Assembly: GCF_001418225.1 (NCBI RefSeq)
Contig: NZ_LIPT01000012.1
Span: 1-64,000 of the forward strand
From: Pannonibacter indicus
Lineage (GTDB): Bacteria > Pseudomonadota > Alphaproteobacteria > Rhizobiales > Stappiaceae
Direction of reading: 5' to 3'
DNA length: 64,000 nucleotides
Positions 34,213-52,315 of this stretch are shown here, in pieces. Every line of letters starts with the position of its first letter. Position 1 is the first letter of the stretch. The notes beneath the pieces were generated by a model. The model worked only from the letters and a program-made list of their open reading frames with translations, was not told the DNA's origin and did no database searches. The position numbers and the translations under genes were made by a program.

Positions 34213-35376
34213 CTAATACGGCGCGGCGGCGCTGCCATTGAGCAGCGGGGCGAGGTAGGGGCCGGTGAGCATGGCGTCCACGTCGAGCGAGGCCGGGTCG
34301 AGCATGCCGGTTGCGGCCAGTTTGCCGCCGGCAAGGCCGCTGATCAGGGTCGCGGCATAGGCTGTGGCGGTGGCCGTGAGGGCGTTGACCGCTTCCCTGC
34401 CATTGCCTCCACCAGCGCCTCCGCCATTGCCTCCATTTGTGCCGAAGCCTGCGGGGCCATGCAGGGGGCCTTGCGGGGGGCCGAAGCGCAGGCACTGGGT
34501 CCGTTCCACCGGCTGGCGGCCGCGCATGGCCTTCACCGTCAGCATCACATGCAGCACGTCATCCTCCACCACCGGCAGCCCGTTGCAGAGCAGGGATTTC
34601 AGCATGTCGCGGCGCTGGCGCAGGCCAAGATCATCGAGCAGAAAGCGCATGTAATCCAGATGGCCGGGATAGCGCAGGGTCTTGAAGGTGACGCTGCGCG
34701 GCGAGAACCGGGCCACCGCATCCAGATCCCCCAGCCCGCCCGACGTGGTGAAGGCCTCGAAGGCGACGCCATCGATGTTGAGGCGCTCGTAGTCCTCCAG
34801 CGGCGACAGTTCCGTGCTGCGGCCTTCGCGCAGGGCGGTGCAGGGGCGGGTGTATTCGTCGATCAGCCCGTCCACATGCCAGATCTGGCCATAGCCCAGC
34901 CGGTTGGCGGGATAGCGGGGCAGGGCGCCGACGCGGATGATGAGATCCGACACCGGCGCATAGCGTTTCAGCAAAGCGCAGGCGAGGGTTCCGGCAAGGC
35001 CCGGTGACACGCCGCAGCCGGGCAGCACGGCGCGGGTTGCCGCCAGTTCCTCCAGCGGCAGGCGGGCCGCCGGTGGCGTGGCGATGAAGTCGAGATAGTG
35101 GACGCGGGCGCGCCGGGCAGCCTCTGCCACGGCGGCGACGGCGCTGTCCGGCACGGCGGCGACCACGAGATCCTCACCCGCCAGAACCGTGTGCAGCTCC
35201 TCCCCATGGCACAGGAGGCGTGTTTCCAGCGGCGCAGTTGCGTGGCGCAAGCCGTCGAGCGCATCCTCGGAGCGGTCAAGCACCCGCACCCGGAAGCTGG
35301 CATCCTGCGCCAGCAGCACGGCAAGGGCCGTGCCCACCCGCCCTGCACCCACGATAGAGATGTTGAAGCCGGACAT
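34213..35376 (-). CDS. Saccharopine dehydrogenase-family oxidoreductase (lysine 6-dehydrogenase-like)
   Basis: The 387-residue protein begins with a Rossmann motif (ISIVGAGRVGTALAVLLAQD) and continues with the saccharopine/lysine-6-dehydrogenase pattern: VHYLDFIATPPAARLPLEEL, VLPGCGVSPGLAGTLACALL, GYGQIWHVDGLIDEYTRPC and YERLNIDGVAFEAFTTSGGL. A glycine/asparagine-rich insertion (GTNGGNGGGAGGGNGR) near residue 325 is unusual. Such enzymes use NAD(P) to oxidise an amine at the side chain of lysine-like amino acids or to reduce the corresponding imine. It is the last gene of the minus-strand amino-acid cluster, 18 bases after the ABC ATPase. Confidence 0.75.
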   Translation of the reverse strand: MSGFNISIVGAGRVGTALAVLLAQDASFRVRVLDRSEDALDGLRHATAPLETRLLCHGEELHTVLAGEDLVVAAVPDSAVAAVAEAARRARVHYLDFIATPPAARLPLEELAATRAVLPGCGVSPGLAGTLACALLKRYAPVSDLIIRVGALPRYPANRLGYGQIWHVDGLIDEYTRPCTALREGRSTELSPLEDYERLNIDGVAFEAFTTSGGLGDLDAVARFSPRSVTFKTLRYPGHLDYMRFLLDDLGLRQRRDMLKSLLCNGLPVVEDDVLHVMLTVKAMRGRQPVERTQCLRFGPPQGPLHGPAGFGTNGGNGGGAGGGNGREAVNALTATATAYAATLISGLAGGKLAATGMLDPASLDVDAMLTGPYLAPLLNGSAAAPY

Positions 35377-35394
35377 GGCTTTCTTGCCTTTCTG

Positions 35395-36189
35395 TCAGGG
35401 CCGGAAACGGGCCACAAACGCCTGGAGACGGGGATTTTCCGGGTTGAGGATGACGCTGTCCGGCGTGCCGCTTTCGGCAATGACGCCCTGGTCGAGAAAC
35501 AGCACCCGTCCGGCAACTTCGGCGGCGAAGGCCATTTCGTGGGTGACGATGGCCATGGTCATGCCCTGTTCGGCGAGCGAGCGGATGACGGCCAGAACCT
35601 CACCGACAAGCTCCGGATCAAGCGCGCTGGTCACCTCGTCGAGGAGCAGAAGCTCCGGTTCCATGGCCAGGGCCCGGGCAATGGCGACCCGCTGCTTCTG
35701 CCCGCCCGAGAGATGGTTGGGGTAGGCCGCGTGTTTTTCGGCAAGGCCGACCTTCGCCAGCAGGTCCATGGCCAGCTCTTCGGCTTCCCGGCGCGGCCTG
35801 CGGCAGACGGTGACCGGGCCTTCGGTGACGTTCTGCAGCACGGTCATATGCGGGAACAGGTTGAAGTGCTGGAACACCATGCCGACATGGCGGCGCAAGG
35901 TGCCGATGCCGATCTTGCCCGCACTGTCCCGGAAACTGTCGCCCACCGGCTGCTGGCGGAAACGGATCTCGCCGCCGGTCGGATGCTCCATGCGGTTGAG
36001 GCAGCGGATGAAGGTGGATTTGCCCGAGCCCGACGGCCCGATCAGGGCCACCACTTCGCCCCGGCTGAGGCTGAGATCAAGGCCCTTGAGGACGTGGTGA
36101 TTGCCATAGCTCTTCTTCAGCCCGGAGGCTTCGATCACCGGGCCTGCGGCGGCACGGCTGATTTCGCTGGTCATGCCCTTCTCCTTCAA
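35395..36189 (-). CDS. Polar amino acid ABC transporter ATP-binding protein (GlnQ/HisP type)
   Basis: The 264-residue protein has Walker [16 protein letters not shown]-loop [18 protein letters not shown], signature [10 protein letters not shown], Walker [12 protein letters not shown] and an H-loop in [20 protein letters not shown] and [16 protein letters not shown] are hallmarks of the PAAT amino-acid family. It overlaps the permease gene by 4 bases. The matching binding protein is encoded divergently at the other end of the cluster. Confidence 0.92.
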
Positions 36190-36851
36190 TCGCTCACGCG
36201 CAGCCGCTTTTCCACCCGGTCGGCGATCTGCGTCACGGGCAGAAGCACCGCGATGTAGAGGACGGCCATGACCGTGTAGGATTCGAGCGGGCGGTAGGTC
36301 TGGCCGTTGACGACGGCCGCCATGTAGGCCAGGTCGGCCACCGAGATCACCGACACCAGCGAGGTGTTCTTGAACTGGATGACGGACTGGTTGATGAAGG
36401 ACGGCAGCATCCGTTTCAGCGCTTGCGGCAGGATGATGCGCTGCATCGACTGCCAGGGGCTCATGCCGATGGCCGCTGCCGCCTCACGCTGGCCCCGGTC
36501 GATCGAGACGATGCCGCCCCGGAAGATCTCCGCATAAAAGGCCCCGACATAGAGCGACAGGGTCAGCATGGCGGCCACCCGGTTGTCGATGGTTCCGCCC
36601 ACCAGCAGCGGGAAGGCGTAATAGAACCACAGCAGCTGAACCAGAAGCGGCGTGCAGCGGAAGATTTCCTGATAGGTGCGGGCGGTCAGGTCGAGCACCT
36701 TCCAGCCGGAGAGGCGCATGGCGCAGGTGAGAAAGCCGATCAGCACCCCGAACAGGATGGAACCCGCTGTGTAGAGGACGCTGATCCAGAGCCCCCACAG
36801 GAACAGATCCCTGTACTGCAAGGCGGAGTGAAAATCCCAGGTGTAGGTCAC
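36186..36851 (-). CDS. Polar amino acid ABC transporter permease
   Basis: The 221-residue membrane protein starts at GTG (complement of 36849-36851) behind GGAGGCGGATC. It has about five helices and the EAA-loop [20 protein letters not shown], typical of HisM/GlnP permeases; [20 protein letters not shown] matches the conserved first loop. Only one permease gene is present, so it probably forms a homodimer. Confidence 0.92.
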
Positions 36852-36942
36852 GATCCGCCTCCTGTTCTGCCGGGGGCCGGCGCATGTGATGTGTCAGTCA
36901 TTCTGGTCCCTCTGGGTCTTCCGGTTCTTGTGTTTCTTGGCC

Positions 36943-36968
36943 GCCCGGCGGTCTTTCCACCGCCGGGC
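36943..36968. other. Strong intergenic hairpin between dapA-like and permease genes
   Basis: GCCCGGCGGT and ACCGCCGGGC form a perfect 10-bp stem with a 6-base loop. In the direction of transcription (minus) no T-run follows, so it is more likely an mRNA processing or stability element, or a partial attenuator, than a classic terminator. Confidence 0.6.
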
Positions 36969-36988
36969 ACGGCAGGCGCCTTGCCGGG

Positions 36989-37909
36989 TCAGCAGGCGCT
37001 GCCGGAAAAGCTGCCGGATGCCGAGCCGAAACGGCTCAGAACGGCGGCAATGGTCTGGCGGCTCCGGTCGGAGACGGGCACCATCGGCAGGCGCATCTCG
37101 GGTCCGGCGAGATTGGCGAGGGCGAGAGCCGCCTTCACCGGACCGGGATTGGACTCGATGAACATGCTGCCGGCAAGCTCCGCGACCAGTTCATGCACCG
37201 CCAGCGCACGGGCCGTGTCGCCCTGTTCCCACGCCTTCACCAGCTCCACCATCTCGCGCGGGGCGATGTTGGAGACGACGCTGGTGACACCGCAGGCGCC
37301 GAGCGACAGGAACGGCAGCGTCAGGCCATCGTCGCCCGAATGAATGATGAGGCGGCTGCCGCAGGCCTGCCGCAGCTCCGTCACGCGGGAAGGGGAGCCG
37401 CCCGCTTCCTTGATGGCAACGATATTGGCGTGCATGTCCATCAGCCGGGCGCAGGTTTCCGGCGCAATCTCGACGCCGCAGCGGCCGGGCACAGAATAGA
37501 GCACCACCGGCAGGGAGGTTGCCTTCGCCACGGCGCTGTAATGGGCGATGAGGCCTGCCTGCTCCGGCTTGTTGTAATAGGGGGTCACGACGAGCACGCC
37601 ATCGGCCCCGGCAGCTTCCGCCCGGCGGACCTTTTCCACGGCCTTTGCCGTGTCATTGGCGCCTGCGCCCGCAAGGATGAAGGCGCGGCCCCGGGCCAGT
37701 TCCACCGTCCGGCGGATCAGGTCTTCGGCTTCCGCATCGGACAGGGTTGCCGCTTCGCCGGTGGTGCCCACGGGCACAAGGCCCGTGACACCGGCTGCAA
37801 GCTGGCGTTCCACCAGGGTGGCATAGGCATCATGGTCAATGCTGCCATTGCGGAACGGGGTGACGAGGGCGGTGAAGACACCGCGGAAGCGGTCAGAAAG
37901 CTGTGTCAT
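36989..37909 (-). CDS. Dihydrodipicolinate synthase (DapA) family protein in a catabolic cluster
   Basis: The 306-residue class I aldolase has PVGTTGEAATLSDAE (threonine pair binding pyruvate), VTPYYNKPEQAGL (catalytic tyrosine), YSVPGRCGVEI with the arginine (PGR) that in true DHDPS binds aspartate semialdehyde carboxylate, and the Schiff-base lysine in IVAIKEAGGSP. It therefore keeps all DHDPS residues that I can check, unlike many catabolic family members that lose the arginine. It is followed 18 bases upstream by a DapB homologue. Alternatives are a hydroxy-pyrroline-carboxylate deaminase or another pyruvate aldolase. The serine-rich tail GSASGSFSGSAC is odd. Confidence 0.85.
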   Translation of the reverse strand: MTQLSDRFRGVFTALVTPFRNGSIDHDAYATLVERQLAAGVTGLVPVGTTGEAATLSDAEAEDLIRRTVELARGRAFILAGAGANDTAKAVEKVRRAEAAGADGVLVVTPYYNKPEQAGLIAHYSAVAKATSLPVVLYSVPGRCGVEIAPETCARLMDMHANIVAIKEAGGSPSRVTELRQACGSRLIIHSGDDGLTLPFLSLGACGVTSVVSNIAPREMVELVKAWEQGDTARALAVHELVAELAGSMFIESNPGPVKAALALANLAGPEMRLPMVPVSDRSRQTIAAVLSRFGSASGSFSGSAC

Positions 37910-37927
37910 GGGGCTCTCCCGTGGAAG

Positions 37928-38671
37928 TCATGTGGTTTGGGTGTCGGCGAGCGTGTAACGCCCGGGGTCTGGTCTGGCCGTGCGGAGCCAGCTGGCGGCA
38001 GCCATTGCGCCTTCGGCATAGGCTGCCAGTGTGTGAACCTGATAGGTGAGCGTCAGCCCGGCGGACCCCAGGTCAAAGCGCACCTCGTTGATGCCGGTGA
38101 CATCGCCCTCGCGGTTGATGGTGATGTCCGGTTCGCTTGCAGCAAAGCCCATGGCCTTGCTCCGCGCCTTTCGCACGGTTTCCGCCAGCCAGCGGGAGGT
38201 GCCGGATGCTTCGGCTTTCTTGCGGGCGTGATAGACCTCCCGCACCGTGGCTTCGGCGCCCGGCATGGTGCTGGCAAAGCGTGCTGCGCACAGGCGGAAA
38301 GCCTCAAAGCCAAGGGCGAAATTGGCGCTGATCACCATCGGCCGGTGGGCGGACCAGCCGGTCAGCTGGTCCTCCTGCGCCCTGGAAAAGCCCGTCGTGC
38401 CGATGACGCAGGGCAGCGGGCTGCTGCCGATCTGCTCCTGCAGCCAGAGTGAGGCGGCGGGCGCCGAGAAGTCGATGATCACATCGCAGCGGGTGTTCAT
38501 GGCCGCTTCTGCGGGCCGGTATTCCAATGCGCCGCCCGCCACCGGCTGCCCCACATGGCGTGAGGTGGGCGAGACAAGCGCGGCCACCAGTTCCAGCCCC
38601 GGACTGGCCAGCACCAGTTCCACCAGCTTTGTGCCGGTACGGCCGGATGCTCCGAAGATCGAGATCCGCAT
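37928..38671 (-). CDS. DapB-family reductase with an altered catalytic motif
   Basis: From the ATG complementary to 38669-38671 (ribosome binding site GGAGGAGC) the product has 247 residues. The N-terminal NAD(P) motif is ISIFGASGRTGTKL. The DapB catalytic loop, normally ExHHxxKxDxPSGTA, reads EVYHARKKAEASGTS: the first histidine is tyrosine and the aspartate-alanine-proline part is changed, while the second histidine, lysine and SGT are kept. CVIGTTGFSRAQEDQL and VISANFALGFEAF are otherwise normal. This suggests a dihydrodipicolinate-reductase-like enzyme with changed substrate, or 2,4-diaminopentanoate-dehydrogenase-like activity. Confidence 0.8.
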   Translation of the reverse strand: MRISIFGASGRTGTKLVELVLASPGLELVAALVSPTSRHVGQPVAGGALEYRPAEAAMNTRCDVIIDFSAPAASLWLQEQIGSSPLPCVIGTTGFSRAQEDQLTGWSAHRPMVISANFALGFEAFRLCAARFASTMPGAEATVREVYHARKKAEASGTSRWLAETVRKARSKAMGFAASEPDITINREGDVTGINEVRFDLGSAGLTLTYQVHTLAAYAEGAMAAASWLRTARPDPGRYTLADTQTT

Positions 38672-38750
38672 TGCTCCTGCTCCTCCTGCCAGCTCTGGCG
38701 ATGCTGGCGCGTCATGCCTTGACATTGTTCATGCCCTGCGCGGGCTGGCG

Positions 38751-40172
38751 TCAGTCGATCACCACCTTGGTTTCGGACATCTCCCGCAAGGTGATGCGCA
38801 CGCCCTCGCGGCCCAGCCCGCTGCGCTTGATGCCGCCGAAGGGCACATGTTCGGCGCGGAAGTCCGGCCCCTCGTTGATCATGACACCGCCCACCGCCAG
38901 CTCGCGGGAGAACAGCTTCACCAGCGAATGGTCATTGGTGAAGACTCCGGCCTGCAGGCCATAGTCGCCCGCATTCACCTCGCAGATGGCGGCCGCCGGA
39001 TCGCGGAAGCTGCGGATGGCGATGACCGGCCCGAAGGTTTCCCCAGCAATGACCGGAGCATCGGCAGCCACATTGCGCAGGACCGTGGGGGCCACGAGCG
39101 TGCCCTCGCGGGTGCCACCGGCCAGCAGCCTTGCGCCGCCCGCAAGGGTCTGGCTGATCCGGCTCTCCACCAGAGCGGCTGCCGCCTCGTCGATGACCGG
39201 ACCCATCACCGTCTCCGCCAGCCGGGGATCGCCTGTGCTTATGCGTGCGACTTCGGCCAGCAGCCGGGCGGTGAATTCCTCTTCGATGTCCTCATGCAGG
39301 TAGAGCTTCTTTACAGCCGCGCAGCTCTGACCGGCGATTTCAAAGCGGTGGCCGATGGCCGTGGCCACGGCCCGGCCGAGATCCGCATCCGGCAGCACAA
39401 ACAAGGGGTCATTGCCGCCCAGTTCCATCAGGCACCGCACCAGTCCGCTGGCCGCCTTCAGCGCAAGGCCGGCCGCCGGGCCGCCGGTGAAGGACAGAAG
39501 GTCGATGGGCGCGCGGGCCAGCGACAGCGCCGTTTCAGCGCCGCCATGCACCACCTGAAACAGCCCGTCCGGCCAGCCCGCCTTTGCGGCGAGATCACAG
39601 AGCATCGCGGCTGCGAGCGGGGCTTTGGGGGATGGCTTGGCGATCACCGCATTGCCCGCGGCAATGGCCGGCCCGAGCTTGTGGCACAAGAGGTTGAGCG
39701 GATAGTTGAAGGGCGTGATGGCCCCGACAACGCCTACCGGCTGATAGGTGACGGTGGCCAGCCGGTCGGCGCCGCCCTCGACGATGGCGCAATGCAGGGT
39801 CTCTCCGTCAAGGAAGGTGGCTGCATCGCCCGAGAGCCGCAGGGTGTTCTGGGCCCGGCGCACTTCATTGCGGGCTTCCGTGATGGTCTTGCCCATCTCG
39901 TTGCAGATGGTCCGGGCCAGTTCTTCCGCATGGGCGGCAATCTGCGCGGCGAGTGACTCCAGCAGCTTGCGGCGCAGCGCCGGGGTGGAGTGCCGGAAGT
40001 CGGCCTGCGCCTTGCGGGCGCGGGCGAGGGCGGCGAGAACCTCCGCTCCGGTGCTGACCGGCACTTCGCCTGCGAGTGCCCCATCAAAGGGATTGCGCAC
40101 CTCGATGGCTGCAGTGCTGGCAGGGGAGAGGGTTGGGGAGAGGGTTGGAGCGGTCTGGACCGGCAGTGTCAT
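38751..40172 (-). CDS. Aldehyde dehydrogenase family protein
   Basis: The 473-residue NAD(P)-dependent enzyme has the cofactor-binding TPFNYPLNLLCHKLGPAIAA, IAKPSPKAPLAA, the catalytic glutamate in MELGGNDPLFVL and the catalytic cysteine in AGQSCAAVKKLYL, and ends FGGIKRSGLGREGVR. The short N-terminus contains PTLSPTLSP repeats. It resembles the semialdehyde dehydrogenase group that includes phosphonoacetaldehyde and succinate/ketoglutarate semialdehyde enzymes. In this cluster it would oxidise the semialdehyde produced from the amino acid. It overlaps the following FAD gene by 4 bases. Confidence 0.9.
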   Translation of the reverse strand: MTLPVQTAPTLSPTLSPASTAAIEVRNPFDGALAGEVPVSTGAEVLAALARARKAQADFRHSTPALRRKLLESLAAQIAAHAEELARTICNEMGKTITEARNEVRRAQNTLRLSGDAATFLDGETLHCAIVEGGADRLATVTYQPVGVVGAITPFNYPLNLLCHKLGPAIAAGNAVIAKPSPKAPLAAAMLCDLAAKAGWPDGLFQVVHGGAETALSLARAPIDLLSFTGGPAAGLALKAASGLVRCLMELGGNDPLFVLPDADLGRAVATAIGHRFEIAGQSCAAVKKLYLHEDIEEEFTARLLAEVARISTGDPRLAETVMGPVIDEAAAALVESRISQTLAGGARLLAGGTREGTLVAPTVLRNVAADAPVIAGETFGPVIAIRSFRDPAAAICEVNAGDYGLQAGVFTNDHSLVKLFSRELAVGGVMINEGPDFRAEHVPFGGIKRSGLGREGVRITLREMSETKVVID

Positions 40173-41557
40173 TGTGTGGCCTCTTCAGCGTGGTCAGCCT
40201 TGCCGGGCTCGGGCCGGATCAGGCTGGAAATGGGAACAGGGCGGACAGGCCAGCGGTGGCCGGTGATCGTGGAAACGGGCAGGCTGCTGCCGGTCAGTCC
40301 GGCCACTGCGGCGGCGGTGTTGGCGGCGCAGAACCGGCCCTGGCAGGCGCCCATGGCAAAGCGCCCGTTCAGCTTCAGCTCACGGCCGGAGAGGCCGGGG
40401 TCTGAGGTGAAAAGCTCGCGCAGATCGCCCATTGTCCTGCCTTCGCAGCGGCAGAGCACGGTGTCATCGGGCAGGCGGTTGAAATGCTCCGGTCCGTCTT
40501 GCGCTGCGAAGACGCGGGCGATGAGATCCTGCATCTTCCCGTATCGGCTCGCCGCGGTTCTCAGCCGCTGCTGCAGGCGCTCCGCAGGCTCTGTCCGGCC
40601 TGCGAGCACGTCAAGGCAGATCTGCCCGGCGGTCTCTCCGCTGCACGCGGCGGCAGGGGCGCCGAGGGCCTGACGGCAATCCCCGGATTGCAGCACCAGC
40701 GGATGGCCGGGCGTATTTTGCGAACTGCCTGAAGGGGCAAGGCCGAAGCTGTTTTCGGCAAGGCCGTCATGCAGCGCGACGCGGTCTGCGGCCAGCGTAT
40801 GAACCCGGCCATGCCGGTCCTGCCACTGCGCCGCAAGGCCGCCTGCCGCCGTTTCGATGCCGGTCAGCCTTGCCCCCCTGTGCCAGGGCACACGGGCGGT
40901 GAGAAGGGAGGCCACATAGCCGCCGGCCTCCAGACAGAGGCCGGGCCAGCGCAGCAGGCCGAGCCCCGCGCGGAGTTGCCGAAAGGGATCACCAGCCTCA
41001 ATGACCGTAAGCGGCGGGGTGCCGAGGCGGACAAGCTGGGCGGCCACGGCCAGCAGCAGCGGGCCGGATCCGGCCAGAACGGTGCGGCCTGCCGGGGCTC
41101 TGCCCGTTTCCTTCATCATCACCTGCAACCCGCCAGCCGTCATCACGCCGGGAAGCGTCCAGCCGGGGCGGGGCAGCACGCGCTCCACGGCCCCGGTGGC
41201 AAGGCACAGGATGCGGCAGCGGAAGGTCTTCACCTGACCGGCCTTCCGGTCCTCCAGCATGACAAGGCCGTCCGCATCAAGGCCAAGATAGAGGTGTTCC
41301 GGCAGGCGCTGGATCGCGGGTGTGTTTTCAAGGCCCGCAAACAGCCGTTCCCGCAGGCGCTTCTGCGCTCTGGCGAGGGACACCGGCGGCACGCCGGGAA
41401 TGGCCATGCGGAAGATGGCGCCGCCGGGGCCGGGCCGCTGGTCCGCCAGCAGCACGCTGGCACCGCCGCGCGCTGCGGTGATGGCGCAGGCCATTCCCGC
41501 CGGGCCGCTGCCGATGACGATGACATCGTGAAAGGACTGGCCGTCAGCCTGCATCAT
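40169..41557 (-). CDS. FAD/NAD(P)-binding subunit A with BFD-like 2Fe-2S domain (opine oxidase/hydroxyproline dehydrogenase type)
   Basis: The 462-residue protein starts with an FAD motif (VIVIGSGPAGMACAITAARG), has a second dinucleotide motif (TVLAGSGPLLLAVAAQLVRL) and a C-terminal BFD-like 2Fe-2S domain with cysteines in VLCRCEGRTMGDLRELF and MGACQGRFCAANTA. This architecture is that of the alpha subunit of octopine/nopaline oxidase, D-hydroxyproline dehydrogenase and related heterotrimeric amine dehydrogenases. It overlaps the small 2Fe-2S subunit gene by 14 bases. Confidence 0.9.
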   Translation of the reverse strand: MMQADGQSFHDVIVIGSGPAGMACAITAARGGASVLLADQRPGPGGAIFRMAIPGVPPVSLARAQKRLRERLFAGLENTPAIQRLPEHLYLGLDADGLVMLEDRKAGQVKTFRCRILCLATGAVERVLPRPGWTLPGVMTAGGLQVMMKETGRAPAGRTVLAGSGPLLLAVAAQLVRLGTPPLTVIEAGDPFRQLRAGLGLLRWPGLCLEAGGYVASLLTARVPWHRGARLTGIETAAGGLAAQWQDRHGRVHTLAADRVALHDGLAENSFGLAPSGSSQNTPGHPLVLQSGDCRQALGAPAAACSGETAGQICLDVLAGRTEPAERLQQRLRTAASRYGKMQDLIARVFAAQDGPEHFNRLPDDTVLCRCEGRTMGDLRELFTSDPGLSGRELKLNGRFAMGACQGRFCAANTAAAVAGLTGSSLPVSTITGHRWPVRPVPISSLIRPEPGKADHAEEATQ

Positions 41558-41816
41558 TGCCTCCTGCGCTGGCAGGCGTCACCGGCCGGACCTCGCTGCC
41601 GCTGCGGGCGGGGGTGAGGCAGGCCTCGCGGATGGTGCCATCAACCAGCACGGCACAGGCCTGACAGGCACCGATACCGCAGAAATAGCGGGCGGGCTGG
41701 CCATTTGCGTCTGTGCCGAGGTGCAGAATGCGGGCCGCTGTCAGCGCCGCTGCAATGGTTTCGCCCGGCCGGAAGGGGACGGTCTCGCCGCACCAGAAAA
41801 AGCTCGGGCCAGTCAT
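41544..41816 (-). CDS. Small 2Fe-2S ferredoxin-like subunit of the amine dehydrogenase
   Basis: The 90-residue protein has the plant-type ferredoxin cysteine pattern in ARYFCGIGACQACAVLVDG and a later cysteine in IREACLTP. The N-terminal half (VPFRPGETIAAALTAARILH) is the usual beta-grasp start. It corresponds to the small gamma subunit (SoxA-like/HcnA-like) of three-subunit opine or hydroxyproline dehydrogenases, passing electrons from the FAD sites. The start overlaps the neighbouring subunit gene by ATGA. Confidence 0.88.
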   Translation of the reverse strand: MTGPSFFWCGETVPFRPGETIAAALTAARILHLGTDANGQPARYFCGIGACQACAVLVDGTIREACLTPARSGSEVRPVTPASAGGNDAG

Positions 41817-42994
41817 GCGGCAAACCTCAGGCTGGCGAAGCGGTCCGGTGCGAAGGGGGCCAGATCCAGCTCCGGCTCCCGGCCGCAGATGAGTGCCGCC
41901 ATGGCCTTGGCCACCACCGGGCCCAGGCAGATGCCGTCGCCCTCAAAGCCGGTGAGAATGTAGCCATTGGTGCAGCCGGGCAGGCGCCCGGCAAGTGGAA
42001 GGGCATCGGCAACGGCTGTGCGCGCTCCCGCGAAGCTGCGCAGCAGCCGCAAGTGGGCAAGGCCCGGCACCAGATCTGCGGCCTGCCGCAGCATGGTGCT
42101 CACGGCCTCAAGGTCCGTCTGGCGGGTGTCGCCGTGGTCCTCACGCGTGCCGCCGATGAGAAACTGTCCTGTCCGCAGCGGGTCGATGACAAGGCCGAAG
42201 CCGCGCTGGTCCCTGGCGCCTGCCGCCTTCTGGCTGCCTTTCGACAGGAGATAGCGGCCCGACATGATCGAGCCCGGCATGCCGGCACTCAAAGCCCGGT
42301 CCCGCTCGGTGACCAGGAGCTGGCCCTTGCGCGGGGTCAGCACACCGGAAAGGCCGAGCAGGGCGGAGGTGCCGTTGCCGGTGGCGATCAGCAGCGCGCC
42401 GGCATTGAGGGTGCCTTTGCTGGTGTGCACGCCGATGATGCGGCTGCCATCGGCGCAGGTCAGGAGGCCTTCCACCTTGCAGTTCCGGTGAACCGTGGCC
42501 CGCGATGCGCTCAGCAGCCGGTGGACGACCTGATAGCCGATGGCGTGACCCTCGCCATGCACTTCCAGCACAAGGCAGGCAGCGGGCGAAAGCGCGGGGA
42601 ACCGGCGGACGATCGCGGGGCCGGAGAAGGCGGTGACCCTGATCCCGGCGCTGGCAAGGGCGGCCCCGTGCCGCTCCAGCACCGCCTCTTCCTCAGCCGT
42701 TGATGCCACGATGAAGGTGGAGCGCTCGTGGAATTCGGCGGCCAGCAGCCCGTCCTGCGCCAGTGACCGGTAGAGCGCGATGCCTTCAAGGGCCGCGCTC
42801 ATCAGCGGGCCCGGCCGCTTGCTGGCGACGGAGACCGCACCATCCGACGCACCCGAGGCCCCGGCCGCAGGCATTGCCGCGTCGAGAACTTCGACGTTCA
42901 GGCCCTGCCGGGCGAGGAAATAGGCAGCCGCACTCCCGGCAATGCCGGCCCCGGCGATGATGATGGGAGAAGTCTGCGCGAGCGGCGTGTCCAC
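41813..42994 (-). CDS. FAD-dependent amine/D-amino acid oxidoreductase subunit B (DAO fold)
   Basis: From the GTG complementary to 42992-42994 (behind AAGGGGACC) the product has 393 residues. It begins with the FAD motif IIIAGAGIAGSAAAYFLARQ and has the DAO-family end EGDGICLGPVVAKAMAALIC (typically GHxxxGi; here FEGDGICLGP). VLEVHGEGHAIGYQVVHRLL and GGTREDHGDTRQTDLEAV are the substrate-domain strands. It is the substrate-oxidising beta subunit of the heterotrimer. First gene of the minus-strand operon, transcribed from the LysR-controlled divergent promoter. Confidence 0.88.
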   Translation of the reverse strand: MDTPLAQTSPIIIAGAGIAGSAAAYFLARQGLNVEVLDAAMPAAGASGASDGAVSVASKRPGPLMSAALEGIALYRSLAQDGLLAAEFHERSTFIVASTAEEEAVLERHGAALASAGIRVTAFSGPAIVRRFPALSPAACLVLEVHGEGHAIGYQVVHRLLSASRATVHRNCKVEGLLTCADGSRIIGVHTSKGTLNAGALLIATGNGTSALLGLSGVLTPRKGQLLVTERDRALSAGMPGSIMSGRYLLSKGSQKAAGARDQRGFGLVIDPLRTGQFLIGGTREDHGDTRQTDLEAVSTMLRQAADLVPGLAHLRLLRSFAGARTAVADALPLAGRLPGCTNGYILTGFEGDGICLGPVVAKAMAALICGREPELDLAPFAPDRFASLRFAA

Positions 42995-43053
42995 CGTCTG
43001 GTCCCCTTGTTCTGACTTGCCTCCAAGTGTGAGGCGGCAGACGGGGCAGCGTC

Positions 43054-43096
43054 GATACAAGAACACAGCATTCCCTGTTCCTGAATTTTGTATCGG
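43054..43096. promoter_or_regulatory. Nested inverted repeats in the divergent LysR promoter
   Basis: CGATACAA (43054-43061) pairs with TTGTATCG (43089-43096), and inside it GAACA (43062-43066) pairs with TGTTC (43077-43081). Both sit between the divergent operon start at 42994 and the LysR start at 43144, the place where a LysR regulator would bind and autoregulate. Confidence 0.65.
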
Positions 43097-43143
43097 CGAA
43101 CTCATTTCCGGCCATTATGGCGGAGGGAGAGAGGTAGACCAGC

Positions 43144-44073
43144 ATGGCCAAGATCAGCCTGACACTCATTCAGACTTTCTACGAAGTCGCCCGCCACGGC
43201 TCGTTTTCGGGCGCCGCGCGGGAGCTTAATCTGAGCTATCAGTCCGCCGCCAATCATGTGCGGCGGCTGGAGCAGCTGCTGAACGGGCGGCTGATCGAGA
43301 CCGAGCAGGGCGCCAAGCGGATCACCCTCACGCCAAGGGGGGTGATGCTCTACAACCTGCTCTATCCGGAACTCGACATCATGCTGGAGCGGCTGACGAA
43401 GCTGATCGAGAACCAGCGGACGGCGCTGCGGGTCGGCATGCCGCAGGCGATCTTCTTTTACCTGTTTCCGAAGGTGCTGAGCCGTTTCCGCGCCCAGTTT
43501 CCCGACATGGAATTCGCCGTCTACGAGCGCGATACGGTCCTTGCCGAACTGGTGAAGAACGGCAGTCTCGACATCTGCATCTCCGAACGCTACTTCGGCG
43601 ATCCCGTGGTGCCGCAGCGGCAGCTTGGCACCTACCGGCTCGCCCTGGTCTATCCGCAGTCCTGGGGCGCCCCGCCCGAGGTGCGCGACATTCCCCGCTG
43701 GGCGCGGGACAAGCCCTTCATCACCTTCGAGCCGGGCCAGACCCTGCGCAATCTGACGATGGATTTCCTCAGCCGTGACGGGGCCAAGGTCCAGCCCACG
43801 ATCACCGCCTCCGGCAGTTCCAGCGTCAAGCGCTGCGTGGAGGAGGGGCTGGGCTTTTCGATCATCCCCGAATGGTGCCTGCTGCCCGAGGATCAGGGCA
43901 TCACCAGCCTGCGCCTCACCAACCTGCCGGAGGTGCGGGTCTATTTCGGCACGGCCGGTTTCCTGCAGAAACATCAGGCCGTGCAGCAGCTGTTTGATGA
44001 CTGCCGCAAGGAACTGGTCGGCCCGATCCTGGAGGCGCCACGCGGCATCGAACTCAACTATCCGGTTCGGTAG
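43144..44073 (+). CDS. LysR-family transcriptional regulator of the amino-acid catabolic cluster
   Basis: The 309-residue protein has the N-terminal winged HTH (LTLIQTFYEVARHGSFSGAA, RELNLSYQSAANHVRRLEQL) and a periplasmic-binding-like effector domain (MPQAIFFYLFPKVLSRFRAQ, LDICISERYFGDPVV). It is divergent from the amine dehydrogenase operon and followed by the amino-acid binding protein, so it probably senses the transported substrate or an intermediate. Ribosome binding site GGAGGGAGAGAGG precedes the ATG. Confidence 0.9.
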   Translation: MAKISLTLIQTFYEVARHGSFSGAARELNLSYQSAANHVRRLEQLLNGRLIETEQGAKRITLTPRGVMLYNLLYPELDIMLERLTKLIENQRTALRVGMPQAIFFYLFPKVLSRFRAQFPDMEFAVYERDTVLAELVKNGSLDICISERYFGDPVVPQRQLGTYRLALVYPQSWGAPPEVRDIPRWARDKPFITFEPGQTLRNLTMDFLSRDGAKVQPTITASGSSSVKRCVEEGLGFSIIPEWCLLPEDQGITSLRLTNLPEVRVYFGTAGFLQKHQAVQQLFDDCRKELVGPILEAPRGIELNYPVR

Positions 44074-44403
44074 GACGGATCGGCATTCAGCGGCCCGCGT
44101 CACGCTGCGCCAATTCCCCCCCCCCCCCCCCGCGCCGCCCGGGCCTTGTGCCGGGGCCTGTAAGGCTGTCACTGCGTCTCAGAGACGGGCAAGGTTTTCA
44201 TCCGGCACTTTTCTCTGCGGCGGGGGTGGTGAGGCTCGGGCAGCGCTGCACATATAAAAAACAGGATAAGGGCGGCCTCTTCCTTAGTATTGTTCAATCC
44301 TGCGCCGCAGCTAGGCTGAAACACGGCCAGTAGTGCTGCCGCTCCACTGGAAGATGTGGAGCAGGCAAAAGCAATTCCAGGGGAACAACGGAGGCCCGGC
44401 AAC
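44074..44403. other. Intergenic region with a 16-base C tract before the binding-protein gene
   Basis: No gene is visible. The region holds an uninterrupted run of 16 C at 44116-44131 and, further on, an A/T-rich promoter-like stretch around 44250-44300 with TATAAAAAACAGGATA. It should carry the promoter of the binding protein and the terminator of the LysR gene; neither is clear. Confidence 0.6.
44116..44131. repeat. Homopolymer tract of 16 C
   Basis: Sixteen consecutive C residues lie 43 bases after the LysR stop and 273 bases before the binding-protein start. Tracts of this length are rare in bacterial genomes and slip readily in replication and in sequencing. Confidence 0.9.
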
Positions 44404-45228
44404 ATGAACTTTCTTGCAAAACTCTGCGGCATCGCCGCCATGGCGCTGGCAGCGGGGACCGCTGCAGCCAGTGCCGGTACGATTGATGATATTCGCGCCC
44501 GCGGTGTCCTGCGCATTCCGGCCATCCTCAATGAGGTGCCCTATTTCAACAAGGACCCGCGCACCGGTGAATGGCAGGGCTTCGTCATCGACATGGCCAG
44601 CGACATTGCCAAGACGCTGGACGTGAAGCTGGAAGTGGTGGAATCGAGCTGGTCCAACGCCATTCTCGACGTGCAGAGCGGCAAGGTGGACATGGCCTTC
44701 GCCGTCACCGCAACGCCGGTTCGTGCCATGTCCGTGTCCTTCTCGGACCCCACCTATTACAACAGCTTCATCATCGTGTCGGCCAAGGACGAGCTGACGG
44801 GCAAGACCTGGCAGGATCTCAACGACCCCAAATACACCTTCGCGGTGGACATGGGCTCGGCGCAGGACCTGATTACCCAGCAGTATCTGCCCAATGCCAA
44901 TATTCTGCGCTTCAAGACACGCGACGAGGCGATCATCGCGGTCACCACCGGCAAGGCGGATGGCCTCGTCAACACCATGCTGAACGGTCTGGTGATTTCG
45001 AAGAAGGCTCCGGCTGTCGGCACCGTGAAGGTTCCGGTTCCGGTGCTCTCGACCCCTTCCGTGATCGCGCTGAACTATGGCACCGACGAAACCTTCAAGA
45101 GCTTCGTCTCCGCCTGGGCCGAATATAACCGCCGCATCGGCAACAACCAGACCTGGATCGTGAAGAGCCTTGAGCCCTTCGGCATCACCTTGACCGATAT
45201 GCCCGAGGGCTTCGGCTTCGGTGGCTGA
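44404..45228 (+). CDS. Polar amino acid ABC transporter substrate-binding protein
   Basis: The 274-residue protein has a signal peptide (MNFLAKLCGIAAMALAAGTA, cleaved after ASA) and the family-3 binding-protein pattern: IRARGVLRIPAILNEVPYFN, WQGFVIDMASDIAKTLDV, VDMAFAVTATPVRAMSVSFS and YTFAVDMGSAQDLITQQYLP. The domain would bind an amino acid or opine through main-chain carboxylate contacts (the usual arginine is in TPVRAMSVSF). It lies across the LysR gene from the permease and ATPase genes but is the only binding protein near, so they should work together. Confidence 0.9.
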   Translation: MNFLAKLCGIAAMALAAGTAAASAGTIDDIRARGVLRIPAILNEVPYFNKDPRTGEWQGFVIDMASDIAKTLDVKLEVVESSWSNAILDVQSGKVDMAFAVTATPVRAMSVSFSDPTYYNSFIIVSAKDELTGKTWQDLNDPKYTFAVDMGSAQDLITQQYLPNANILRFKTRDEAIIAVTTGKADGLVNTMLNGLVISKKAPAVGTVKVPVPVLSTPSVIALNYGTDETFKSFVSAWAEYNRRIGNNQTWIVKSLEPFGITLTDMPEGFGFGG

Positions 45229-50982: not shown

Positions 50983-52315
50983 GTGTGCTGAGAGTTCTGC
51001 AAATTCGCTGAGAGATGGCGGTCATGGCAGACTGGTGTTGTTCAAGTTCACCGTTTCCCGTGGAAGGAACGCCGCCATGACCAAGTCCAAAGGTAAGACC
51101 GCCAGCGCCAGCGTCAAAGAGATTCTGCTTTCGCACCCAGACGGCCTGCGCAATGTGATCCGCGCCGTCATGCAGGAGGTTCTGGAAGCAGAGATGGACG
51201 AGGCGCCGGGAGCGGCGAAGAGCGAGCGGACGCCGGAGCGTCTGGGCTATCGCTCGGGCCATTACAGCCGCACGCTGGTGACGCGTGTGGGCAAGCTGGA
51301 GCTCAGAGTGCCGCAAGACCGGCAGGGCCGCTTCTCAACCGAACTGTTTGAGCGCTACCAGCGCTCGGAGCGGGCCTTGGTTGCGACACTGGCGGAGATG
51401 TATGTGCAGGGCGTATCGACGCGCAAGGTCAAGGCCATCACGGAAGAGCTGTGCGGCCATGCTTTCTCGGCCTCTTCAATCTCGGCCATCAACAAGCGCC
51501 TCGACGAAAGCCTTGCCGCCTTTGCCGGGCGCCCGCTTCATGAGCCCTTTCCTTACCTCATCCTCGATGCGCGCTACGAGAAGGTGCGGGAGGCAGGCGT
51601 CGTCATGAGCCAGGCGGTGCTGATTGCGGCCGGCACCGACTGGGACGGACGGCGCCAGATCCTGGCCGTCGGGATGGCCAATCGCGAGAGCCGCTCGGCC
51701 TGGCGGGACTTCCTCGCCGGCCTGAAGGCGCGCGGCCTCAAGGGCGTCGAGCTGGCCGTGTCAGACGATCACCCCGGCCTGGCCGCAGCGATCGGCGAGG
51801 TGATCCCTGAGGCCGCATGGCAGCGCTGCTATGTGCATTTCCTCAGGAACGCGCTCGACCATCTGCCGAGAAAGCATGGTGACGACTGCCTGCAGGAGCT
51901 CAGGTGGCTCTACGACCGCCGGGATCTTGACGAAGCAAAGGCTGATCTTGCCGCATGGCTCGCCAAATGGTCGCCCCGCTACCCGCGGCTGACAGCATGG
52001 GCCGAGGAGAACATCGAGCAGACACTGACATTCTTCCGGCTGCCGCGCCAGCACCACAAGCATCTGAAGTCCACCAACATGCTCGAGCGCCTCAACGAGG
52101 AGATAAGACGCCGAACCTATGTCGTGCGCATCTTCCCCAACACCGAAAGCTGCCTGCGCCTCGTCAGGGCCCTAGCTGTCGAAACCAGCGAAAACTGGAT
52201 GGAGGCCAACCGCTACATCAACATGGACGATCTCAAGGAGCACAAAAAGCTCCAACTCCGAAAAGCAGCATGACTAGATTCATGACCGCCCAAATTTGCA
52301 GAACTTGACGCACAC
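50983..52315 (+). mobile_element. Complete IS256-family insertion sequence
   Basis: The element runs from GTGTGC at 50983 to the complementary GCACAC ending at 52315. Both ends share, in inverted orientation, GTGTGC followed after four bases by AGTTCTGCAAATT, with a further shared GGCGGTCATG inside. One transposase gene fills it. The bases outside (TTTGGTA on the left, GACCCATCC on the right) are not the 8-9 bp target duplication expected after a simple insertion, which suggests that a deletion or recombination occurred after insertion. Its right border cuts into an SMP-30-type gene. Confidence 0.85.
51077..52273 (+). CDS. IS256-family transposase
   Basis: The 398-residue DDE transposase starts at ATG 51077. 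The three acidic residues lie in YLILDARYEKVREAG (first Asp), LAVSDDHPGLAAAIGEVIPE (second Asp) and the RRTYVVRIFPN-containing C-terminal part with the glutamate before it in the Mutator/IS256 arrangement (LNEEIRRRTY). The N-terminal RLGYRSGHYSRTLVTRVGKL and VPQDRQGRFSTELFERYQRS are family-conserved. The frame is intact, so the element may be active. The ORF fills the IS. Confidence 0.95.
   Translation: MTKSKGKTASASVKEILLSHPDGLRNVIRAVMQEVLEAEMDEAPGAAKSERTPERLGYRSGHYSRTLVTRVGKLELRVPQDRQGRFSTELFERYQRSERALVATLAEMYVQGVSTRKVKAITEELCGHAFSASSISAINKRLDESLAAFAGRPLHEPFPYLILDARYEKVREAGVVMSQAVLIAAGTDWDGRRQILAVGMANRESRSAWRDFLAGLKARGLKGVELAVSDDHPGLAAAIGEVIPEAAWQRCYVHFLRNALDHLPRKHGDDCLQELRWLYDRRDLDEAKADLAAWLAKWSPRYPRLTAWAEENIEQTLTFFRLPRQHHKHLKSTNMLERLNEEIRRRTYVVRIFPNTESCLRLVRALAVETSENWMEANRYINMDDLKEHKKLQLRKAA

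What the first reader, a model, noticed from the sequence alone, without database searches (positions are those of the whole stretch)
34213..45228. Uncharacterised amino-acid catabolic cluster combining DapA, DapB, saccharopine-dehydrogenase-like and a three-subunit amine dehydrogenase
Seen: ten co-localised genes with overlapping or closely spaced frames. A divergent LysR regulator controls a three-subunit FAD/2Fe-2S amine dehydrogenase, aldehyde dehydrogenase, DapB-like, DapA-like, an amino-acid ABC transporter and a saccharopine/lysine-dehydrogenase-like enzyme. Known: the heterotrimer occurs in opine and D-hydroxyproline breakdown; DapA-family enzymes are used in hydroxyproline breakdown, but that pathway has an epimerase and no DapB. 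Inference: the substrate is an imported opine, cyclic or lysine-like amino acid oxidised to an imine or semialdehyde, with the DapA/DapB pair acting on a dipicolinate-like intermediate. I know of no described pathway with this set.
Basis: partly seen in the sequence, partly recalled or inferred. Interest (0 to 1): 0.78.

Follow-up and report, generated by a model that had tools for sequence, protein, structure and literature searches.

The report
Conserved gene cluster degrading unusual amino acid
A set of eleven neighbouring genes, kept together in the same form in many soil, plant-associated and marine bacteria, probably imports and breaks down an unusual, still unidentified amino acid by way of an intermediate that cells normally use to make lysine.

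Summary
The cluster is real: 11 genes, window 34213-45228 (FAD/2Fe-2S trimer, ALDH, DapB', DapA', permease, ATPase, SDH'; LysR and solute-binding protein on the other strand). All 11 recur in 28 further distinct loci, mostly Hyphomicrobiales. Canonical dapA and dapB lie elsewhere. In the 24 clusters aligned, DapA' keeps the DHDPS residues for pyruvate and aspartate semialdehyde (ASA) but has lost the lysine feedback site. It is unlike the hydroxyproline deaminase HypD. DapB' has lost His159 and Arg240 and is missing from two related clusters, so it is an accessory. SDH' is a separate group in the lysine-6-dehydrogenase-like family. Homoserine-type loci also pair ALDH with DapA around ASA. Best reading: an imported N-substituted or opine-like amino acid is oxidised to ASA; ALDH makes aspartate; DapA' (with DapB') drains or supplies ASA. 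The substrate is unknown. Six literature searches aimed at such a pathway showed none with this set. New variant of a known kind.

The parts
34213..35376 (-). SDH': saccharopine-dehydrogenase/lysine-6-dehydrogenase-like NAD(P) enzyme
   Evidence: PF03435 + PF16653; nearest solved chain 3abi/PH1688; separate from 30 paralogues
35395..36174 (-). amino-acid ABC transporter ATPase
   Evidence: PF00005; best NCBIfam TcyN/GlnQ/HisP, all below cut-off
36186..36851 (-). amino-acid ABC transporter permease
   Evidence: PF00528; TIGR01726 over cut-off
36989..37909 (-). DapA': DHDPS paralogue with intact active site and lost lysine feedback site
   Evidence: TIGR00674 315.8 bits, cut-off 206.15; residues
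37928..38671 (-). DapB': diverged DHDPR paralogue
   Evidence: PF01113 + PF05173; TIGR00036 below cut-off; H159Y, R240L
38751..40172 (-). aldehyde dehydrogenase; best curated models are for small acidic or hydroxy aldehydes, all below cut-off
   Evidence: PF00171, NCBIfam; catalytic motifs 24/24
40169..41557 (-). alpha subunit of FAD/2Fe-2S trimer (Pyr_redox_2 with a four-Cys stretch)
41544..41816 (-). gamma subunit, 2Fe-2S protein
   Evidence: PF13510; C-x4-C-x2-C motif 24/24
41813..42994 (-). beta (catalytic) subunit, DAO family
   Evidence: PF01266; start codon as in P. phragmitetus annotation
42995..43143 (.). 149-bp divergent region between trimer operon and LysR (presumed promoters)
43144..44073 (+). 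LysR-type regulator
   Evidence: translated; orthologues annotated LysR
44404..45228 (+). solute-binding protein of the ABC transporter
   Evidence: PF00497; nearest PDB chain AncCDT-1

Best explanation
A LysR-linked catabolic island that imports an unusual, probably N-substituted (opine-like) alpha-amino acid and oxidises it to L-aspartate-4-semialdehyde (ASA). Steps: (1) the SBP-permease-ATPase system imports the amino acid [inferred from family]. (2) The FAD/2Fe-2S trimer oxidises a C-N bond to an imine that hydrolyses, and SDH' (probably NAD+-linked) opens the omega C-N bond, releasing an amino-acid semialdehyde [inferred from families]. (3) That semialdehyde is ASA [inferred from DapA' residues, the SDH' family and the homoserine-type parallel]. 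(4) ALDH oxidises ASA to aspartate [inferred]. (5) DapA', a DHDPS freed from lysine feedback, condenses surplus reactive ASA with pyruvate; the retro-aldol direction is not excluded [active-site residues shown, direction inferred]. (6) DapB' reduces the product or a related cyclic imine [inferred], and is dispensable [absence shown in two loci].
For: DapA' keeps T44, T45, Y107, Y133, R138 and K161 in 24/24 and N248 in 23/24 aligned clusters; PMC5109050 names T44, Y107, Y133, R138, K161 as catalytic and PMC11201819 shows R138 and N248 at the carboxyl of an ASA analogue. The lysine site (S48, H53, H56, E84) is replaced in 24/24 but kept in the genome's canonical DapA. Homoserine-type loci on Agrobacterium and Mesorhizobium plasmids place ALDH beside DapA, with homoserine dehydrogenase and aspartase. 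SDH' belongs to the Lys6DH/saccharopine dehydrogenase family, whose known members handle amino-acid semialdehydes (established knowledge, recalled). B-C-A order and the gamma Fe-S motif match OpnDH/D-HypDH. DapB' is absent from two clusters while DapA' and ALDH stay. The importer and divergent LysR suggest uptake and catabolism.
Against: No substrate, expression or enzyme data. The cluster ALDH is only 39-41% identical to the homoserine-type ALDHs, so ALDH similarity does not point to ASA. The DapA' group is not sister to the homoserine-type DapAs. DapA' differs from E. coli at I203 (Thr in 24/24), so its aldehyde may differ from ASA. A DHDPS sink is an odd outlet for bulk carbon. The alpha subunit's four-Cys spacing (33 residues in the window) is longer than the 15-20 given for OpnDH. 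The trimer's nearest relatives on plasmids outside the cluster (about 50% in beta) sit beside other kinds of transporter, amidases among the neighbours in two, substrate unknown.
Confidence: 0.4

Rival explanations
1. Reverse-lysine route: a diaminopimelate-like or 4-hydroxylated piperidine amino acid is oxidised by SDH' and/or the trimer to HTPA (or THDP then HTPA), DapA' cleaves HTPA to pyruvate + ASA, and ALDH makes aspartate.
For: DapA' has an intact DHDPS active site without the feedback site. SDH' carries Arg159 in 24/24 where only 2 of 29 readable paralogues have Arg, consistent with an extra carboxylate. The ATPase's best curated model is cystine-type TcyN, below cut-off (weak).
Against: If DapB' ran backwards to make HTPA it should be obligatory, but two clusters lack it, unless a canonical DapB substitutes. 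The reverse DHDPR step is thermodynamically unfavourable (recalled). 4-hydroxylated precursors are rare (recalled).
Confidence: 0.2
2. Lysine-type route: SDH' oxidises a lysine derivative (D-lysine, pipecolate or saccharopine-like) to AASA/P6C, ALDH gives 2-aminoadipate, the trimer and DapB' handle the cyclic imine P2C, and DapA' has another aldolase role.
For: SDH' is nearest to PH1688, recalled as a lysine dehydrogenase. In 13 of 29 class loci a paralogous dehydrogenase has an ALDH beside it. The SBP is nearest AncCDT-1, an arginine binder.
Against: The genome already has an ordinary paralogue (C1:35801-36847; no ALDH match beside it in L084). SDH' is a separate group (100/100) in which the paralogues' Asn (28 of 29) is Gly or Thr. 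The retained ASA-binding residues of DapA' would be unexplained.
Confidence: 0.17
3. Hydroxyproline-type route: trimer = D-hydroxyproline dehydrogenase, DapA' = Pyr4H2C deaminase, ALDH = alpha-ketoglutarate semialdehyde dehydrogenase.
For: Trimer + DapA-family + ALDH is the enzyme set of bacterial hydroxyproline catabolism (recalled), and the trimer resembles D-HypDH. 4 of 7 cluster genomes do have an epimerase-family gene somewhere.
Against: No epimerase-family match over cut-off in the own genome, G006 or G801 (3 of 7). DapA' is 28.5% identical to the S. meliloti HypD candidate, which lacks T45, Y107 and R138. The route has no use for SDH' or DapB'.
Confidence: 0.05
4. A biosynthetic or secondary-metabolite cluster that uses DapA'/DapB' to make a THDP-derived compound.
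For: A DHDPS paralogue without feedback site would suit dedicated precursor supply.
Against: A solute-binding-protein importer in each complete cluster examined; trimer + ALDH are degradative in kind; no condensation, tailoring or export gene among the 11; DapB' dispensable.
Confidence: 0.06

Closest known systems
Flavin-containing opine dehydrogenase / D-hydroxyproline dehydrogenase heterotrimers (OdhB-C-A, NoxBA, OoxBA)
   Same: beta-gamma-alpha gene order with overlapping frames, DAO-type beta, 2Fe-2S gamma motif, four-Cys stretch in alpha, amino-acid-type ABC transporter in the cluster
   Different: Substrate unknown; alpha four-Cys spacing longer than that quoted; sits with ALDH, DapA', DapB' and SDH'. 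The main text of PMC4575208 has 0 occurrences of 'dihydrodipicolinate' and of 'saccharopine'
Rhizobial homoserine-type catabolic locus (ABC, homoserine dehydrogenase, ALDH, DapA, aspartase, kinase)
   Same: ALDH + DapA + amino-acid ABC importer, with ASA expected as intermediate
   Different: Here trimer and SDH' stand in place of homoserine dehydrogenase, there is no aspartase, and DapA' has lost the lysine site which the one homoserine-type DapA checked keeps
Bacterial trans-4-hydroxyproline pathway (LhpABC/Hyp)
   Same: trimeric dehydrogenase, DapA-superfamily enzyme, ALDH
   Different: no epimerase over cut-off in the own genome, DapA' not HypD-like, extra SDH' and DapB'
Lysine 6-dehydrogenase / saccharopine dehydrogenase family
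   Same: fold family, NAD-binding motif and shared conserved residues
   Different: separate group; Arg159 in 24/24 and Gly/Thr163 where paralogues mostly have Ala or Ser and Asn
Canonical DapA/DapB of lysine biosynthesis
   Same: DapA' active-site residues complete; DapB' fold family, Thr104, Lys163 and SGT motif mostly kept
   Different: canonical copies lie elsewhere in the genome; DapA' feedback site and DapB' His159/Arg240 lost

Membership tests
DHDPS (DapA) | curated model TIGR00674 over cut-off | tested here: met
   315.8 bits against 206.15
DHDPS (DapA) | catalytic/substrate residues T44, Y107, Y133, R138, K161 | tested here: met
   24 of 24 aligned cluster sequences (24 of the 29 complete clusters incl. 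window were aligned); residue list from PMC5109050
DHDPS (DapA) | lysine feedback site (H53, H56, E84) of Gram-negative enzymes | tested here: not met
   replaced in 24 of 24; not all DHDPSs are lysine-inhibited (recalled)
DHDPS (DapA) | condensation of pyruvate with ASA | not testable with these tools
   needs assay
DHDPR (DapB) | curated model TIGR00036 over cut-off | tested here: not met
   106.8 bits against 122
DHDPR (DapB) | catalytic His159 and Lys163 (roles recalled) | tested here: not met
   His159 is Tyr in 23 of 24; Lys163 kept in 23 of 24
Lysine 6-dehydrogenase | groups with ordinary alphaproteobacterial paralogues | tested here: not met
   25 cluster sequences split from 30 paralogues at 100/100; the paralogues' own function is by homology only
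OpnDH / D-HypDH heterotrimer | B-C-A gene order with overlapping frames | tested here: met
OpnDH / D-HypDH heterotrimer | gamma-subunit motif C-x4-C-x2-C-x11-12-C | tested here: met
   last spacing 11 in the window; 24 of 24 with last spacing allowed 8-16
OpnDH / D-HypDH heterotrimer | alpha-subunit motif C-x-C-x15-20-C-x4-C | tested here: inconclusive
   C-x-C-x(20-45)-C-x4-C in 24 of 24, but the window spacing is 33, outside the quoted 15-20
OpnDH / D-HypDH heterotrimer | Arg-X-Trp motif of the beta subunit | tested here: inconclusive
   a candidate R-x-F-x-G-x-R stretch is in 17 of 17 usable sequences (6 truncated extractions of 23 dropped); whether it is the paper's motif was not established
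Hydroxyproline pathway | hydroxyproline epimerase (PF05544) in the genome | tested here: not met
   over cut-off in 4 of 7 cluster genomes, not in the own genome, where one match (20.6 bits) is below it
Hydroxyproline pathway | HypD-type deaminase | tested here: not met
   S. meliloti HypD candidate has S/M/L/Y at positions 44/45/107/138; DapA' has T/T/Y/R
Homoserine-type ASA locus | homoserine dehydrogenase in the cluster | tested here: not met
   none among the cluster enzymes by Pfam and NCBIfam

The most novel reading that the evidence does not exclude
The cluster is a dedicated route for breaking down amine chelators with 3-amino-3-carboxypropyl arms (nicotianamine, phytosiderophores, or opine metallophores of the staphylopine/pseudopaline type). 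The opine-dehydrogenase-like trimer removes the keto-acid or ring part, SDH' clips each aminobutyrate arm as ASA, and ALDH plus DapA'/DapB' dispose of the ASA.
Probability: 0.1. Interest if true: 0.85.

Novelty: new variant of a known kind. Interest (0 to 1): 0.5.

Why it matters
An 11-gene unit kept intact across many Hyphomicrobiales and in Azospirillum, and seen in six plasmid records (one of them without DapB'), presumably confers growth on a specific nutrient, and nothing in its annotation names it. Finding the substrate would give a function to divergent DapA, DapB and saccharopine-dehydrogenase paralogues that automatic annotation now files under lysine biosynthesis, and would show how a biosynthetic aldolase was recruited to catabolism. 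If the substrate is a plant or bacterial metal chelator, the cluster would be a molecular handle on chelator turnover around roots.

Tried and rejected
Hydroxyproline pathway: rejected on the own genome's lack of an epimerase over cut-off and on non-HypD residues. Strain-specific neighbourhood: rejected. Cluster DapA/DapB as the lysine-biosynthetic copies: rejected; canonical copies exist in the own genome, and 8 of 8 tested cluster genomes carry a canonical-type DapB. Close kinship of DapA' or ALDH with the homoserine-type locus: not found (DapA by tree; ALDH by identity only). Arg159 of SDH' as a unique marker: weakened, since 2 of 29 readable paralogues also have Arg. Emcibacter DapB-like locus (L053): unrelated context, no help. 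Conserved flanking genes that might name the substrate: none that helped. Literature: six searches aimed at such a pathway or substrate in an open-access library listed no paper describing this gene set; four more were for the homoserine locus, the binding protein, HypD and DHDPS residues. Only search listings, starts of abstracts and 'find' passages were seen; passages for PMC4575208, PMC10745273, PMC10228743, PMC7683729, PMC10203105, PMC5109050 and PMC11201819. A tree from the beta subunits was not attempted because my automatic extraction truncated 6 of 23. Structure prediction was not used, because I could not inspect coordinates here. The Chelatococcus chromosome was not searched for DapB'.
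Full report
What is there. The window carries a compact cluster at 34213-45228. Reading along the minus strand, the order is: beta subunit (42994-41813, DAO family), gamma subunit (41816-41544, 2Fe-2S), alpha subunit (41557-40169, Pyr_redox_2 with a four-Cys stretch), aldehyde dehydrogenase (40172-38751), DapB' (38671-37928), DapA' (37909-36989), amino-acid ABC permease (36851-36186), ATPase (36174-35395) and SDH' (35376-34213). On the plus strand lie a LysR regulator (43144-44073; named from its annotated orthologues) and the ABC solute-binding protein (44404-45228). Gaps between the nine co-directional genes are -4, -14, -4, 79, 18, 137, 11 and 18 bp.

Where it occurs. The nearest named relatives are plasmids of Pannonibacter phragmitetus (cluster proteins 92-99% identical to strain BB; strain 31801 annotated alike), so the window is probably from a Pannonibacter. 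A DapB' scan of named genome contigs gave 23 loci. All 11 genes are present in 21 of them; one is a 3.5-kb contig with five of the genes; one (Emcibacter) is an unrelated context. Two of the three loci, L028 and L029, are the same contigs as L031 and L032, as contig length shows, and are not counted twice. Genera in the record titles of the complete loci are Pannonibacter, Stappia, Rhizobium, Ciceribacter, Shinella, Nitratireductor, Neorhizobium, Martelella, Hoeflea, Mesorhizobium, Agrobacterium, Aminobacter, Allorhizobium and Azospirillum, plus a MAG titled Arenimonas that may be misbinned, and Ensifer. In Azospirillum halopraeferens and the unnamed G100 the solute-binding gene sits inside the operon. 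A crude grouping of ORFs from 24 loci and the window gave one family outside the cluster in as many as 3 loci, which are closely similar to each other. The cluster is uncommon: cluster-type DapA' was found in 4 of 397 genomes of the order (E 1e-125) and 2 of 385 of the class (E 1e-110), own genome included. DapB' stood clear of the canonical DapB background in 4 of 61 close relatives, 3 of 297 genomes of the order and, of 398 genomes of the phylum, in the own genome only (scores of the listed matches).

DapA'. It passes the curated DapA model (315.8 bits, cut-off 206.15). Residues were compared in 24 of the 29 complete clusters (window, L030, G100 and the 21 scan loci). By alignment to E. coli, T44, T45, Y107, Y133, R138 and K161 are kept in 24 of 24 and N248 in 23 of 24. 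PMC5109050 (passage) lists K161, T44, Y107, Y133 and R138 as the catalytic residues. PMC11201819 (passages) describes R138 and N248 contacting the carboxyl of an ASA analogue, and lysine contacts at positions 53, 80, 84 and 106. The lysine site is largely gone: S48 is Ala in 24 of 24, H53 is Asp, Glu or Thr, H56 is Ala, Thr or Ser, and E84 is Lys, Arg, Ala, Ser or Thr; N80 and Y106 remain. The genome's own canonical DapA and the one homoserine-type DapA checked keep S48, H53, H56 and E84. I203 is Thr in 24 of 24, which leaves room for a different aldehyde. The 25 cluster DapAs (24 plus Chelatococcus) separate from two canonical and three homoserine-type DapAs on one branch (100/99; few outgroups, bootstrap not fully settled). 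The DapA-family protein of the Sinorhizobium meliloti hydroxyproline-type locus (near a proline-racemase-family gene, an ALDH, a DAO enzyme and aconitase X; my naming as HypD) is 28.5% identical and lacks T45, Y107 and R138. DapA' is therefore DHDPS-like, not HypD-like.

DapB'. It has both DapB domains but falls below the curated cut-off (106.8 against 122). It keeps T104, S168 and G169 (24 of 24) and K163 and T170 (23 of 24). It has Tyr for His159 and Leu for Arg240 in 23 of 24, and Val for Glu38 in 24 of 24 (residue roles recalled). Two related clusters lack it. Chelatococcus sp. CO-6 has LysR, trimer, ALDH, DapA', transporter and SDH' on a plasmid but no DapB' there, and an Asp/Glu-racemase-family gene follows SDH'. 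In G1025 a contig-edge cluster shows ALDH followed directly by DapA'; the two DapB matches elsewhere in that 83%-complete genome score 49 and 30 bits, at canonical or weaker level. DapB' is therefore accessory to DapA', which speaks against a pathway that must run backwards through DapB'.

SDH'. The nearest solved chain is PH1688 (3abi, 100.9 bits), which I recall as a lysine dehydrogenase. A paralogue at C1:35801-36847 of the same genome and 29 others form the other side of a 100/100 branch from the 25 cluster sequences (two cluster rows, G100 and Azospirillum, branch near the divide). In 13 of the 29 other loci that paralogue has an ALDH match beside it, though not in the own genome's stretch L084. 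SDH' has Asp34 and Arg159 in 24 of 24 and Gly (23) or Thr (1) at 163. Of the 29 paralogues whose motif could be read (of 30), 2 have Arg at 159 and 28 have Asn at 163. A changed, perhaps larger or more acidic substrate is likely but not shown; Asp34 fits NAD rather than NADP (rule recalled).

Trimer, ALDH, transporter. The beta-gamma-alpha order with overlapping frames and the gamma Fe-S motif (24 of 24) match the flavin-dependent opine and D-hydroxyproline dehydrogenases of PMC4575208 (passages). The alpha four-Cys stretch is present in 24 of 24 with a loose pattern, but its spacing of 33 in the window exceeds the 15-20 quoted there. The closest trimers on plasmids outside the cluster (about 50% in the beta subunit) are in Shinella and Sinorhizobium beside a LysR gene, with another kind of ABC transporter, and amidases in two of the four loci viewed. 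ALDH catalytic motifs are intact in 24 of 24; its best curated models (sulfoacetaldehyde, lactaldehyde, phosphonoacetaldehyde) are all below cut-off. The solute-binding protein is nearest AncCDT-1, a reconstructed arginine-binding protein (PMC7683729, passages).

Why aspartate semialdehyde. Three points meet there. First, DapA' retains the ASA-binding set. Second, SDH-family enzymes make or use amino-acid semialdehydes (recalled: lysine 6-dehydrogenase, saccharopine dehydrogenase, carboxynorspermidine dehydrogenase). Third, plasmids of Agrobacterium pusense and Mesorhizobium huakuii carry an importer, homoserine dehydrogenase, ALDH, DapA, aspartate ammonia-lyase and a kinase close together; A. 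fabrum has part of it. In that locus ASA is the expected intermediate. PMC10228743 (passages) describes ASA arising from homoserine by homoserine dehydrogenase and refers to a homoserine-catabolic cluster in R. leguminosarum; that it is the same kind of locus is my inference. Against this, the ALDHs are only 39-41% identical and the DapAs are not sisters, so the parallel is one of logic, not shown descent.

Verdict. The cluster is an apparently undescribed catabolic unit assembled from known enzyme families, with ASA as the most probable hub (confidence 0.4) and the substrate open. I rate it a new variant of a known kind.

Noticed in passing
window 44116-44131: A run of 16 C between LysR and the solute-binding-protein gene; no run of 9 or more G or C exists in the P. 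phragmitetus BB locus L125. Possible phase-variable tract or assembly artefact.
   Followed up: partly
window 51035-52273: Mutator-family transposase near the cluster. In P. phragmitetus plasmids hpa-type genes abut the solute-binding gene; the window proteins tested to the right of the cluster had no match in L125, while the two tested to the left are shared with it.
   Followed up: no
L129, L130, L131: Homoserine-type loci on Agrobacterium and Mesorhizobium plasmids include a DapA, with the lysine site kept in the one checked (A. pusense), beside aspartase and a kinase.
   Followed up: partly
L053 9379-10116: A DapB-like protein (38% to DapB') in an Emcibacter MAG beside a TonB receptor, a GntR regulator, a CoA-transferase pair and a class III aminotransferase.
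   Followed up: no
L139, L142: S. meliloti and S. medicae pSymA carry a related trimer next to a LysR gene with another kind of ABC transporter and an amidase; substrate unknown.
   Followed up: no
L050 (Aminobacter carboxidus), DapB' motif region: This DapB' has lost Lys163 and Thr170 of the conserved motif, suggesting decay of DapB' in an otherwise complete cluster.
   Followed up: no
window 34213-35376, about residues 303-330 of SDH': A glycine-rich insertion in the window's SDH' that is a gap in the relatives aligned; the P. phragmitetus gene, not in those alignments, has the same length.
   Followed up: no
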